A stretch of DNA of 64,000 bases from Phyllobacterium myrsinacearum (GTDB lineage: Bacteria; Pseudomonadota; Alphaproteobacteria; Rhizobiales; Rhizobiaceae): contig NZ_PVBT01000001.1 in NCBI RefSeq assembly GCF_002980555.1, positions 248,001 through 312,000 on the forward strand, read 5' to 3'. Every line of letters begins with the position of its first letter. The stretch's first letter is position 1. The notes beneath the pieces were generated by a model. The model was not told the DNA's origin and did not search any database. It saw only the letters and a program-made list of their open reading frames with translations. Shown here piece after piece: positions 18,075 through 38,773 of this stretch. The position numbers and the translations under genes were made by a program.

Positions 18075-18190
18075 AGTTCCTTACCCCGATGGTTGAGGGC
18101 AAAGGCCAGGCGCACGCGTGCAGGACATACGGGCGCTCATGACGCCCGCTTGCAAGCGACACCGGACACCCCGCCCGTGGACGTTATCTA

Positions 18191-18380
18191 TCGCGGCAGG
18201 TCTCCTGGCTTGCGGGTCGGCGCTCTCGTCAGGCCTTCCCGATCCGTCCTGGGATCAGTGACACGAAATTGACGAGAACTCGCCGCTTACAGTTGCGGGG
18301 GCAGCTCCGGATTGAACCGCTGGCAGCGATCGCACCGTATTCCCTCTTAGCTCTGCGCCCATAGGCGCAGAGAACCACGA
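18191..18380 (-). promoter_or_regulatory. Cobalamin riboswitch upstream of metE
   Basis: Read on the minus strand the conserved blocks come in the right order: GGTTCTCTGCGCC stem, AGAGGGAATACGGTGC, the core GCTGCCCCCGCAACTGTAA, GTCACTG of the B12-box region near 18255-18262, GGGAAGGCC, and the final GCCAGGAGACCTGCC at 18195-18209. These are the signature parts of the adenosylcobalamin riboswitch. It ends about 115 bases before the metE ATG. No T-rich terminator was found between it and metE, so translational or rho-dependent control seems likelier than an intrinsic terminator. Confidence 0.95.
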
Positions 18381-18456
18381 TGCGGGGCATGGTAGGCGCG
18401 TCGCCGAAGACTGTCAACAACACATAAAGACATATTTATATGGTTACATCTTCGGG

Positions 18457-35498: not shown

Positions 35499-36497
<999 letters not shown>

Positions 36498-36557: not shown

Positions 36558-37454
36558 ATGTCGCTTGACTGGGACAAATTGCGAATATTCCATGCTGCGG
36601 CGGAGGCTGGGTCGTTCACCCATGCCGCCGAGACGCTGCATCTGTCGCAATCGGCCATCTCCCGCCAGGTGAGCGCTTTGGAACAGGATGTCGGCGTTCC
36701 CCTGTTTCACCGGCATGCGCGCGGCCTGATCCTGACCGAGCAGGGCGAGGTGCTGTACCGCACGGCGCATGAAGTGCTGATGAAGCTGGAAAATGTCCGC
36801 TCGCGCCTGACCGAAAGCAAGGACCGCCCGTCGGGCAAGCTGCGCGTCACCACCACCGTCGGTCTCGGTTCCGGCTGGCTGATCGAGCGGGTGCAGGAAT
36901 TCATCGAGCTTTATCCGGAAGTGCAGCTGCAGCTGCTGCTCGACAATGAAGAGCTGGATCTGACGATGCGCCATGCGGATTGCGCCATTCGCCTGCGCCA
37001 GCCGCAGCAGCCCGATCTGATCCAGCGGCGGTTGTTCACCGTGCATATGCACGTCTACGCCTCGCCGGGCTATATCGCCAAATACGGCAAGATCGAAAAC
37101 ATCGACGAGATCGATTCCCACCGCATCGTCAGCTTTGGCGAACCGGCGCCGTCGTACCTCACCAATCTCAACTGGCTGGAAGGGATCGGCCGGTCCGACG
37201 GCAATCTGCGGCCCGCCGTTCTGCAGATCAACAATCTCCTGTCGATCAAGCGCGCCATCCAGAAGGGCGTCGGCCTCGGTGTGCTTCCCGATTACATGGT
37301 CGAGAAAGATTCGACCCTGGTGCGCCTGTTGCCGGAGATGGAGCTGCCATCCTTCGATACGTTCTTCTGCTATCCCGAGGGAATCAAGAACGCAGCGAAA
37401 TTGCACGTGTTTCGGGATTTCCTTTTCTCGAAGGCGCGCACCTGGTCGTACTGA
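36558..37454 (+). CDS. lsrB: LysR-family regulator of the LsrB/VtlR type
   Basis: A 298-residue LTTR. The N-terminal HTH is MSLDWDKLRIFHAAAEAGSF and TLHLSQSAISRQVSALEQDV; the effector domain includes PSGKLRVTTTVGLG and HADCAIRLRQPQQ. Cysteines C142 and C271 lie at positions comparable to redox-sensitive cysteines reported for S. meliloti LsrB. Sequence and context (after trxB, before an AbcR-like sRNA) match LsrB of Sinorhizobium, which affects LPS and redox gene expression, and VtlR of Brucella and Agrobacterium, which controls AbcR sRNAs. GGGGGAGAG precedes the ATG. Confidence 0.88.
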   Translation: MSLDWDKLRIFHAAAEAGSFTHAAETLHLSQSAISRQVSALEQDVGVPLFHRHARGLILTEQGEVLYRTAHEVLMKLENVRSRLTESKDRPSGKLRVTTTVGLGSGWLIERVQEFIELYPEVQLQLLLDNEELDLTMRHADCAIRLRQPQQPDLIQRRLFTVHMHVYASPGYIAKYGKIENIDEIDSHRIVSFGEPAPSYLTNLNWLEGIGRSDGNLRPAVLQINNLLSIKRAIQKGVGLGVLPDYMVEKDSTLVRLLPEMELPSFDTFFCYPEGIKNAAKLHVFRDFLFSKARTWSY

Positions 37455-37579
37455 CCGGCTGTTTCCGCATTTTTGCGAAAAATTTTTCTTTCGAAAGCGG
37501 GCAGATTCGGAGCATGATCTTGCCGGATTGCATCGCAAAGGCGCGCTCTCATTTCAAAAATGCCGATAAATTGTCGGTA

Positions 37580-37605
37580 TGCATTTGGTGCATGGGTGCA
37601 TTGCA
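37580..37605. promoter_or_regulatory. TGCAT repeats upstream of the AbcR-like sRNA
   Basis: TGCAT occurs at 37580, 37589 and 37597, with TGCA again at 37602, i.e. about one per 8-9 bases. The cluster is 45-60 bases upstream of the predicted sRNA start, where an activator such as the adjacent LTTR could bind. Confidence 0.4.
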
Positions 37606-37640
37606 CAATTGGGGGATTGCAAGAAGCGGTTAAAGGGCCC

Positions 37641-37770
37641 ATATCCACATCACTAGCCGATGCGTCTCCTCCTCCCATTGCGCATCCGCTAGTGTTCCCC
37701 TCTGGAGGTTTTGCCAGAAATGGCATCCTTCAAAACTTAAGGCCGGGCAATTGTCCGGCCTCTTTTCTTT
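37641..37770 (+). ncRNA. AbcR-like small regulatory RNA
   Basis: In the gap between lsrB and msrP a strong stem, CACTAGC-C-GATGCG (37651-37664) with CGCATC-C-GCTAGTG (37681-37694), presents a 16-base loop containing CTCCTCCTCCC, a perfect anti-Shine-Dalgarno stretch. A second exposed CCCCTCTGGAGG follows and the transcript ends in the GGCCGG...CCGGCC hairpin with a TCTTTTCTTTT tail. AbcR1/AbcR2 of Agrobacterium, Sinorhizobium and Brucella are Hfq-binding sRNAs with such loops that silence ABC-transporter mRNAs, and in Sinorhizobium and Agrobacterium they lie beside lsrB/vtlR. Position, layout and structure agree; the 5' end is estimated. Confidence 0.82.
37741..37770 (+). terminator. Terminator of the AbcR-like sRNA
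   Basis: GGCCGG (37741-37746) pairs with CCGGCC (37755-37760); the inner GCAATTGT is also nearly self-complementary. A T-rich tail (TCTTTTCTTT) follows. Confidence 0.88.
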
Positions 37771-37792
37771 TCTGGGGTATGTTTCCAAAAAA

Positions 37793-38773
37793 TCAGCGAT
37801 AGAGCGTTTCGTTTTCAAGCCTCGTATAGAGGGACGCGACCTGATCGCCATAGCCGTTGAACAGCAGGGTCGGCACGGTTTCACCCGTGTGCAGCACGCG
37901 CTCCTGCGCCTGGCTCCAGCGGGGATGCGCCACCGCCGGATTGACGTTGGCCCAGAAACCGTACTCGTTCGATGCCAGCTCTTCCCAGAAACTCACCGGC
38001 CGCTTGTCGGTGAAGCTGATCTTGCGGATCGATTTGATTGACTTGAACCCGTATTTCCACGGCAAAGCGAGGCGGATCGGCGCGCCGAACTGGTTGAGCA
38101 GGGGCTTGCCATAGGCGCCTGTCACCAGGAAGGCGAGCTCGTTGGCGGCCTCCGCCATGGTGACGCCCTCCACATAGGGCCAGCTATAGAGAAAGCCGTT
38201 CTGGCCGCTGGCCATGGCTGGGTCGTTGAAGGTCTCGAAGCGGATATATTTGGCCGAGGCGAGCGGTTTCGCCAGTTCGACCAGCCTGGACAGGGAAAAG
38301 CCGGTCCAGGGAATGGTCATCGACCAGGCCTCGACGCAGCGGTGCCGATAGAGACGCTCCTCCAGCGGAATTTTTGCTTCAAGGTCGGCAAATTCGATGA
38401 TGAAAGGTTTTTCCACCATGCCGTCGATGTCGATCGCCCATGGGTTGGTGATGAGGCTCCGCGCCTCGGCATAAATGCCCTTGTCCGATCCGAACTCGTA
38501 GAAATTGTTGTATGTCGCGTTGATCGCTTCCGGTGTCAGGCTGCGGTCGAGCGTGTAGGCACCGTTGCGTCTGGCCGGATAGAGCGCCGGGTTGCCCGCA
38601 GGTTTATGCTCCCCCTCGGCGCGCGCCACTTTTGGTAATGCTGTGAGCGCAGCGGTTGCCAGCGCACCAAGACCCCATGCCTGCAGGATCGATCGCCGGT
38701 TCAGAAACGCGGCCTCCGGGGTTGCCAGGGTTTCGGCTATCGCCCAGGCGGGCTTGCGGTGAATGGCGGCCAT
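37793..38773 (-). CDS. msrP: Protein-methionine-sulfoxide reductase catalytic subunit
   Basis: A 326-residue molybdopterin oxidoreductase of the MsrP/YedY family, which repairs oxidised methionine in periplasmic proteins. A twin-arginine signal (NRRSILQAWGLGALATAAL, residues 25-43) directs folded export. The Mo-ligand cysteine is C146 in YRHRCVEAWSM. Electrons normally come from the haem protein MsrQ, whose gene is usually adjacent but is not next to this one: the flanks are the sRNA and aspC. ATG 38773 is chosen over an upstream ATG because it matches the family N-terminus. Confidence 0.92.
   Translation of the reverse strand: MAAIHRKPAWAIAETLATPEAAFLNRRSILQAWGLGALATAALTALPKVARAEGEHKPAGNPALYPARRNGAYTLDRSLTPEAINATYNNFYEFGSDKGIYAEARSLITNPWAIDIDGMVEKPFIIEFADLEAKIPLEERLYRHRCVEAWSMTIPWTGFSLSRLVELAKPLASAKYIRFETFNDPAMASGQNGFLYSWPYVEGVTMAEAANELAFLVTGAYGKPLLNQFGAPIRLALPWKYGFKSIKSIRKISFTDKRPVSFWEELASNEYGFWANVNPAVAHPRWSQAQERVLHTGETVPTLLFNGYGDQVASLYTRLENETLYR

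What the first reader, a model, noticed from the sequence alone, without database searches (positions are those of the whole stretch)
37641..37770. AbcR-type sRNA beside lsrB/vtlR
The gap between an LsrB/VtlR-like regulator and msrP contains a long stem whose 16-base loop is a CTCCTCCTCCC anti-Shine-Dalgarno sequence, a second exposed CCCCTCTGGAGG, and a GC hairpin with T-rich tail. This is the AbcR layout known from Agrobacterium, Sinorhizobium and Brucella, at the same genomic address. Only one copy is evident here, where some relatives have two in tandem.
Basis: partly seen in the sequence, partly recalled or inferred. Interest (0 to 1): 0.75.

Follow-up and report, generated by a model that had tools for sequence, protein, structure and literature searches.

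The report
AbcR small RNA beside lsrB
A plant-associated soil bacterium (Phyllobacterium) carries, next to a regulator gene, a standard copy of a known small RNA family thought to silence nutrient-uptake genes; it is an ordinary family member, with a second copy elsewhere that looks wired to the heat-shock system instead.

Summary
Window 37652-37766 (+) matches Rfam RF02345 (ar15, the AbcR family) at 58.7 bits, gathering score 40. It lies in a trxB - lsrB/vtlR - abcR - msrP block of a Phyllobacterium genome. Upstream is an exact copy of the published LsrB/VtlR box (GCAT-N3-TG-N3-T, 37590-37602). Of 65 named lsrB loci with an abcR downstream, 62 have this box, 78-82 nt before TCCTCCCA, while the distance from lsrB varies from 136 to 1491 nt. 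Compensatory changes support the fold. One correction: the copy is single here, but the genome holds a second on contig C10. The 21 genus genomes searched each have one lsrB-type copy and one dispersed copy; 21 of 21 dispersed copies carry an RpoH-like -35 and 0 of 21 the exact LsrB box. Best mechanism: an Hfq-dependent antisense RNA covering ribosome-binding sites of ABC-transporter mRNAs; transcription, Hfq binding and targets are inferred. Verdict: new member of a known kind. The mildly new point: the LsrB/heat-shock split of inputs known from S. meliloti seems kept although the copies are no longer in tandem.

The parts
35523..36497 (+). trxB, thioredoxin-disulfide reductase
   Evidence: TIGR01292 400.5 bits, cut-off 343.45
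36558..37454 (+). lsrB/vtlR, LysR-type regulator (298 aa; only two cysteines, C142 and C271, which by position resemble A. tumefaciens C144/C273; not aligned here)
   Evidence: PF00126 + PF03466; cysteine positions; 97-100% identity to the 16 best named LsrB loci, 14 of them titled Phyllobacterium, and 78-86% to the Brucella-clade loci
37579..37593 (+). possible second, upstream LTTR half-site (ATGCATTTGGTGCAT); inference
   Evidence: sequence; ATGCAT palindrome 37579-37584; tandem LTTR motifs are reported for PabcR1 in S. meliloti work (PMC8844928, passages)
37589..37605 (+). LsrB/VtlR box: exact GCAT-N3-TG-N3-T at 37590-37602 inside the imperfect palindrome TGCATGGGTGCATTGCA
   Evidence: conserved at a fixed spacing in relatives
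37617..37622 (+). candidate -35 (TTGCAA, weak)
   Evidence: 17 nt before CATATC; judged by eye against the consensus CTTGAC-N17-CTATAT quoted; the generic sigma-70 scan found nothing
37640..37645 (+). candidate -10 (CATATC); CATAT stands there in the 21 class 1 copies printed for the genus
37651..37770 (+). abcR small RNA gene (class 1, LsrB type); Rfam match 37652-37766
   Evidence: RF02345 58.7 bits; start inferred from the box and the stem; end in the T tail
37651..37694 (+). hairpin 1, presents the anti-Shine-Dalgarno loop 37666-37679
   Evidence: compensatory changes
37672..37677 (+). M1 motif CUCCCA (within CUCCUCCUCCCA 37666-37677)
   Evidence: motif named in PMC5461406; found; invariant
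37694..37699 (+). M2 motif GUUCCC
   Evidence: motif named in PMC5461406; found; invariant
37703..37732 (+). hairpin 2 (UGGAGG...CCUUCA with an inner GCCAG hairpin)
37740..37770 (+). intrinsic terminator, 9-bp GC-rich stem + CTTTTCTTTT
37793..38773 (-). msrP, converging neighbour
   Evidence: NF003767 399.9 bits, cut-off 207

Best explanation
It is the LsrB-controlled AbcR (ar15) small RNA of a Phyllobacterium. LsrB, made from the gene just upstream and probably sensing redox through its two cysteines, binds the box at 37589-37605 and activates a weak sigma-70 promoter, giving a transcript of about 116-120 nt from about 37651 to the terminator at 37740-37770. Hfq would stabilise it. The open UCCUCCCA loop (and GUUCCC) pairs with ribosome-binding sites, above all those of mRNAs for periplasmic binding proteins of ABC transporters, blocking translation and speeding decay. 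It corresponds to AbcR1 of S. meliloti and A. tumefaciens and, by its VtlR box, to AbcR2 of Brucella. Shown here: family membership, conserved fold and loops, conserved box at fixed spacing, presence of hfq and rpoH genes. Inferred: transcription, LsrB binding, redox sensing, Hfq binding, targets, direction of regulation.
For: RF02345 58.7 bits vs gathering 40. Fold z -8.05. 36 lsrB-linked copies (34 distinct): loops invariant, 88.9% of cells paired against 81.6% in shuffles (0 of 500 as high), 81 cells with double-sided changes against 32.0, slid structures 31-48% paired. Box: 62 of 65 named loci, spacing 78-82 nt in a search of starts 60-90 nt upstream of the loop; random 42-nt windows of the same loci 0.0045; in the genus 20 of 21 exact, 21 of 21 relaxed. 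hfq: 106.2 bits. ABC-transporter parts lie behind 23 of 57 GGGAGGA-type RBS ORFs against 2 of 23 for a control RBS (p 0.004); binding proteins behind TGGGAGGA 12 of 30 against 1 of 23 (p 0.0025). Mechanism as published for S. meliloti and Brucella (PMC8844928, PMC5461406, PMC3712013; passages read).
Against: No RNA data. The score is modest: rhizobial-type copies reach 108-118 bits in this genus and up to 127 in the family. The sigma-70 scan found no promoter. The outer stem pairs differ between lineages: helix 1 has 72.6% of cells paired, and two of five measures do not exceed the shuffles. 3 of 65 named copies lack the exact box, and 15 of 80 LsrB loci have no abcR core within 5 kb; for two of the 15 the coordinates put it about 5.5 kb away. 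The RBS enrichment is a correlation and not shown to depend on the eighth base: AGGGAGGA gives 5 of 27 binding proteins, 12/30 vs 5/27 p 0.07.
Confidence: 0.93

Rival explanations
1. The RNA is a 3'-UTR product of the lsrB mRNA, released by an RNase, not an independent transcription unit.
For: lsrB is upstream on the same strand; ~200 nt separate its stop from the RNA, and the scan of 37450-37850 found no terminator-like site other than the RNA's own.
Against: The box and the RNA keep 78-82 nt between them while the gap from lsrB runs from 136 to 1491 nt in 65 named loci; CATAT is conserved just before the RNA in the genus.
Confidence: 0.05
2. Part of a small coding ORF (for example the 80-aa ORF 37560-37802 +).
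For: An 80-aa ORF spans the region.
Against: Lengths of the lsrB-type copies are 114, 115, 116 or 117 nt in the genus, with one- and two-base indels, so no frame is kept; changes follow base pairing.
Confidence: 0.01
3. A related but different aSD small RNA family (ar14) rather than AbcR.
For: RF02344 ar14 aligns with 30.2 bits.
Against: ar14 is below its gathering score (58.8); ar15 is above its own; the GUUCCCCUCUGGAGG part, the lsrB address and the LsrB box point to ar15.
Confidence: 0.01

Closest known systems
AbcR1 of Sinorhizobium meliloti (ar15 / RF02345)
   Same: lsrB next door; LsrB box GCAT-N3-TG-N3-T at the reported spacing; exposed UCCUCCC loop; A/U-rich stretch and Rho-independent terminator (PMC3712013 and PMC8844928, passages read)
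   Different: No tandem AbcR2; msrP instead of an ArsR-type gene on the far side
AbcR1/AbcR2 of Agrobacterium tumefaciens
   Same: trxB - vtlR - abcR order and VtlR box (PMC7486931, passages read)
   Different: Tandem pair and arsR downstream there; single local copy here
AbcR2 and AbcR1 of Brucella abortus
   Same: A VtlR-controlled copy separate from a second copy elsewhere; M1 CUCCCA and M2 GUUCCC both present (PMC5461406, passages read)
   Different: The second copy of Phyllobacterium stands beside an acyltransferase gene; no flanking protein is shared with the dispersed copies of the Brucella-clade genomes compared. B. abortus itself was not examined.

Membership tests
AbcR / ar15 (RF02345) | Covariance score over the curated gathering score | tested here: met
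   58.7 bits vs 40
AbcR / ar15 (RF02345) | Exposed anti-SD loop UCCUCCC(A) (M1) in the first hairpin | tested here: met
[quoted passage not shown]
   37694-37699; its first G pairs at the foot of hairpin 1, the rest is open in the fold
AbcR / ar15 (RF02345) | Conserved fold with compensatory changes | tested here: met
   88.9% of cells paired, 81 double-sided changes; two of five measures not above shuffles
AbcR / ar15 (RF02345) | A/U-rich single strand before a Rho-independent terminator with U tail (Hfq signature in PMC3712013) | tested here: met
   AAAACUUAA then GC stem and CUUUUCUUUU, by eye; binding itself not tested
AbcR / ar15 (RF02345) | Transcribed, Hfq-stabilised, represses ABC-transporter mRNAs | not testable with these tools
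   hfq present; RBS enrichment only correlative
LsrB/VtlR-controlled AbcR (AbcR1 of S. meliloti) | LsrB box GCAT-N3-TG-N3-T at -61 to -49 | tested here: met
   box at 37590-37602; position fits if transcription starts at 37651, which is inferred; 20 of 21 exact in the genus
Tandem AbcR1-AbcR2 arrangement | Second ar15 copy directly downstream | tested here: not met
   one ar15 match in the window; the second copy is on contig C10
ar14 (RF02344) | Score over gathering score 58.8 | tested here: not met
   30.2 bits

The most novel reading that the evidence does not exclude
In the Phyllobacterium/Brucella clade the AbcR pair is split across the genome, but the two inputs known from the S. meliloti tandem pair are kept: the lsrB-linked copy answers to LsrB (redox), the dispersed copy to a heat-shock sigma factor (RpoH1-like). 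The RNA plus its promoter would then be the unit of inheritance, and the activator of the VtlR-independent AbcR copy in Brucella, called yet to be described in 2017, would be an RpoH sigma factor.
Probability: 0.55. Interest if true: 0.45.

Novelty: new member of a known kind. Interest (0 to 1): 0.3.

Why it matters
As a single finding it is ordinary: it extends a well-studied regulon to Phyllobacterium. The comparison around it gives something testable. The core copies sort by promoter into LsrB type and RpoH-like type, one of each in 21 of 21 genus genomes and at least one of each in the 12 Brucella-clade genomes compared. If true, a redox input and a heat-shock input feed the same kind of transporter-silencing RNA through changes of gene order, and it names a candidate for a regulator that PMC5461406 (2017) calls yet to be described.

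Tried and rejected
Generic sigma-70 scan: no promoter in the region; I used the published alphaproteobacterial consensus by eye instead. NCBIfam for the LysR protein: nothing over a curated cut-off among the 25 of 56 families shown, so the name lsrB/vtlR rests on synteny and identity to relatives. In one search the loci of 17 minus-strand matches were read on the wrong strand; one search repeats it with the strands put right, and only the plus-strand row L002 is cited. One search looked at 1500 nt only and is replaced for counts. Target test: a first pattern (CTGGGAGGA) carried a base that the RNA does not complement and was replaced by TGGGAGGA. The tight control AGGGAGGA turned out rich in ABC-transporter genes too (10 of 27), so the eighth base is not shown to matter. 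ORFs under 60 aa were dropped before the counts (6 of 36 TGGGAGGA sites, 7 of 34 AGGGAGGA, 7 of 31 AAAGGAGA), as was one of two overlapping hits of one gene (L327/L328); the remaining ORFs were not checked to be real genes. The alignment A1 holds the window and 35 of the 65 named loci, picked by me for spread; two rows (L132, L134) were cut short of the terminator by my end rule. Of 45 matches I read 43; the two unread ones are below the cut-off (28 and 26.6 bits). The 7 copies from six anonymous genomes were picked by hand.

Papers: the 2018 Rhizobiales AbcR review is not held. PMC12772402 and PMC3747064 (passages) name no sigma factor for a Brucella abcR. In the listings seen I saw no paper on AbcR of Phyllobacterium or on RpoH control of a Brucella abcR; three of these lists were cut (20 of 37, 15 of 90, 10 of 28 papers shown), and most subscription papers are not in that library.

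Full report
WHAT IS THERE. The window comes from the genus Phyllobacterium: the 16 best named LsrB loci are 97-100% identical, 14 of them titled Phyllobacterium and two 'Rhizobiales bacterium'; three other species titled Phyllobacterium stand further off at 83-84%. The order is trxB (35523-36497 +), a LysR regulator (36558-37454 +), the RNA (37651-37770 +) and msrP (37793-38773 -). At gathering scores Rfam finds two families in the 64 kb: a cobalamin riboswitch far away and RF02345 ar15 at 37652-37766, 58.7 bits against 40. A lenient scan of 37300-38100 shows ar14 second at 30.2 bits, below its cut-off of 58.8.

FOLD. 37648-37770 folds into three hairpins at -52.6 kcal/mol, z -8.05 against 200 shuffles. 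Hairpin 1 shows the loop CUCCUCCUCCCAUU; between hairpins 1 and 2 UUCCCCUC is open; hairpin 3 is the terminator. In 36 lsrB-linked copies (window plus 35 of 65 named loci, from Phyllobacterium, Brucella-clade and Mesorhizobium-clade genomes) the two loops do not vary. The given pairs are kept in 88.9% of cells (shuffles 81.6 +/- 0.5, 0 of 500 as high) with 81 double-sided changes (shuffles 32.0, 0 of 500); sliding the partner drops pairing to 31-48%. Two measures did not exceed the shuffles: the number of pairs with a double change (294 of 500 as high) and further pair types (498 of 500). The structure was taken from the window's own fold, which favours it over the slid versions. RNAalifold's own consensus has 25 pairs, 6 with a double change.

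PROMOTER. Published work on S. meliloti puts an LsrB box GCAT-N3-TG-N3-T at -61 to -49 of abcR1, above a sigma-70 promoter (PMC8844928, passages read). Here the exact box is at 37590-37602. Counting from it, transcription would start at 37651, one base before the Rfam match and on the first base of stem 1. CATATC at 37640-37645 and TTGCAA at 37617-37622 are candidate -10 and -35. Of 80 named LsrB loci, 65 have an abcR core downstream within the 5 kb held; 62 of these 65 have the exact box (starts sought 60-90 nt before TCCTCCCA), and the spacings are 78-82 nt only, while the lsrB-to-loop distances run from 136 to 1491 nt; random 42-nt windows of the same loci give 0.0045. The other 15 loci, 13 of them titled Brucella or Ochrobactrum, have no core in the locus on either strand; for B. 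pituitosa and B. pseudogrignonensis the coordinates of the same type of copy imply about 5.5 kb downstream of lsrB. The other 13 were not placed.

SECOND COPY. The genome has a second ar15 copy over the cut-off, G000:C10:196315-196411, 55.6 bits, beside an acyltransferase gene; four weaker matches (14-18 bits) are chance level. In 21 genomes of the genus (own included) 65 copies were found at E 0.001, one of them below the cut-off, and all 65 were read. I sorted them by lsrB adjacency and by their first bases; the labels are mine. Class 1 (LsrB type): 21 copies, one per genome; 20 within 1.5 kb of lsrB; the last (L021) was placed by sequence, and its coordinates agree with L097, where the gap is 1.5 kb. 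Class 2 (starts GCGTAACGA): 21 copies, one per genome; the ORF downstream of the own copy has a match beside all 21 and beside no other copy. Class 3: 20 further copies in 11 genomes. Class 4: 3 copies of rhizobial type. Exact LsrB box: class 1 20 of 21, class 2 0 of 21, class 3 1 of 20, class 4 1 of 3. (C/G)TTGA(A/T) at -40 to -33: class 1 1 of 21, class 2 21 of 21, class 3 1 of 20, class 4 0 of 3. The C10 copy has CTTGAA-N16-CATATTT, close to the RpoH1 consensus CTTGAA-N16-CCTATAT quoted in PMC8844928. The class 2 copies of a genus are related, so 21 of 21 is not 21 independent events.

RELATIVES. In 20 named genomes reached from LsrB loci, one search found 45 matches; I read 43, plus 7 picked from six anonymous genomes, 50 in all, 48 distinct. 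Of the 50, 22 have the LsrB box, 22 have (C/G)TTGAA at -36/-37 without it, 6 have neither. Two LsrB-box copies also have CTTGAA at -37 (L218, L239), and 4 of 65 named class 1 copies have (C/G)TTGAA between -45 and -30, so this -35 alone is no proof. All 20 named genomes have an LsrB-box copy; 13 have an RpoH-like one: the 12 of the Brucella clade (Brucella/Ochrobactrum and neighbours, Paramesorhizobium, and two species titled Phyllobacterium with LsrB at 83-84%) and 1 of 8 in the Mesorhizobium/Aquamicrobium group. The dispersed copies of the Brucella clade share flanking proteins with each other and not with the Phyllobacterium class 2 copies: either the RNA moved with its promoter or the promoter type arose twice. 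More widely, 114 of 151 genomes of the family have an ar15 match at E 0.001 and 99 over the cut-off; 59 of 61 have an LsrB match at E 1e-60.

FUNCTION. hfq (106.2 bits) and rpoH (377.6 bits; a second sigma factor gene at 134.6, below the cut-off) are in the genome. As a rough target test I listed ATGs 3-9 nt behind three 8-base RBS types in the own genome: TGGGAGGA 36 sites, AGGGAGGA 34, AAAGGAGA 31, of which 30, 27 and 23 gave distinct ORFs of at least 60 aa. Pfam at E 1e-10 shows periplasmic binding proteins in 12 of 30 (TGGGAGGA, the complement of the loop), 5 of 27 (AGGGAGGA, one pair less) and 1 of 23 (AAAGGAGA). All ABC parts: 13, 10 and 2. Fisher, one-sided: 12/30 vs 1/23 p 0.0025; 5/27 vs 1/23 p 0.14; 12/30 vs 5/27 p 0.07; ABC parts 23/57 vs 2/23 p 0.004. 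This fits AbcR targeting but may only reflect a shared RBS style of such genes.

COMPARISON. In the sequence features tested this is an AbcR/ar15 RNA. It is the LsrB/VtlR-controlled paralogue: AbcR1 in S. meliloti and A. tumefaciens, AbcR2 in B. abortus according to PMC5461406 and PMC7486931 (PMC8844928 calls the B. abortus one AbcR1). LsrB here has exactly two cysteines, 142 and 271; PMC11975290 (passages read) reports C144 and C273 as conserved among LsrB homologues. The correspondence is by position and was not aligned.

LIMITS. No transcript data. Sigma factor assignments rest on short motifs. 

Noticed in passing
window 18178-18394 (-): Cobalamin riboswitch, RF00174, 121.5 bits.
   Followed up: no
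L007, L008, L009 (G019:C4, G004:C89, G020:C2): Three Phyllobacterium genomes carry an extra ar15 copy at 108-118 bits, far above their other copies and nearer the rhizobial type: possibly horizontally acquired.
   Followed up: partly
L012-L015, L017, L019, L027-L030, L033, L176, L183, L186, L192, L205-L209: 20 further ar15 copies in 11 of 21 genomes; 6 of 20 keep a relaxed LsrB-type box, some as a near-palindrome TGCATAGCWGCTATGCA: an expanding RNA family with mixed promoters.
   Followed up: partly
L113-L116, L119, L120, L122-L124, L127, L128, L130, L133, L135, L158: 15 of 80 lsrB loci have no abcR core within 5 kb; for two of them coordinates imply about 5.5 kb, so something may have been inserted between lsrB and abcR.
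   Followed up: partly
G000:C1:313480-314247, just beyond the window end: A second RpoH-like sigma factor gene (134.6 bits, below the 323.1 cut-off).
   Followed up: no
G026 and G064: Two small genomes of the family (1.1 and 1.5 Mb) keep LsrB without an ar15 match at E 0.001 (the family run used stricter filters, so weak copies may be missed).
   Followed up: no
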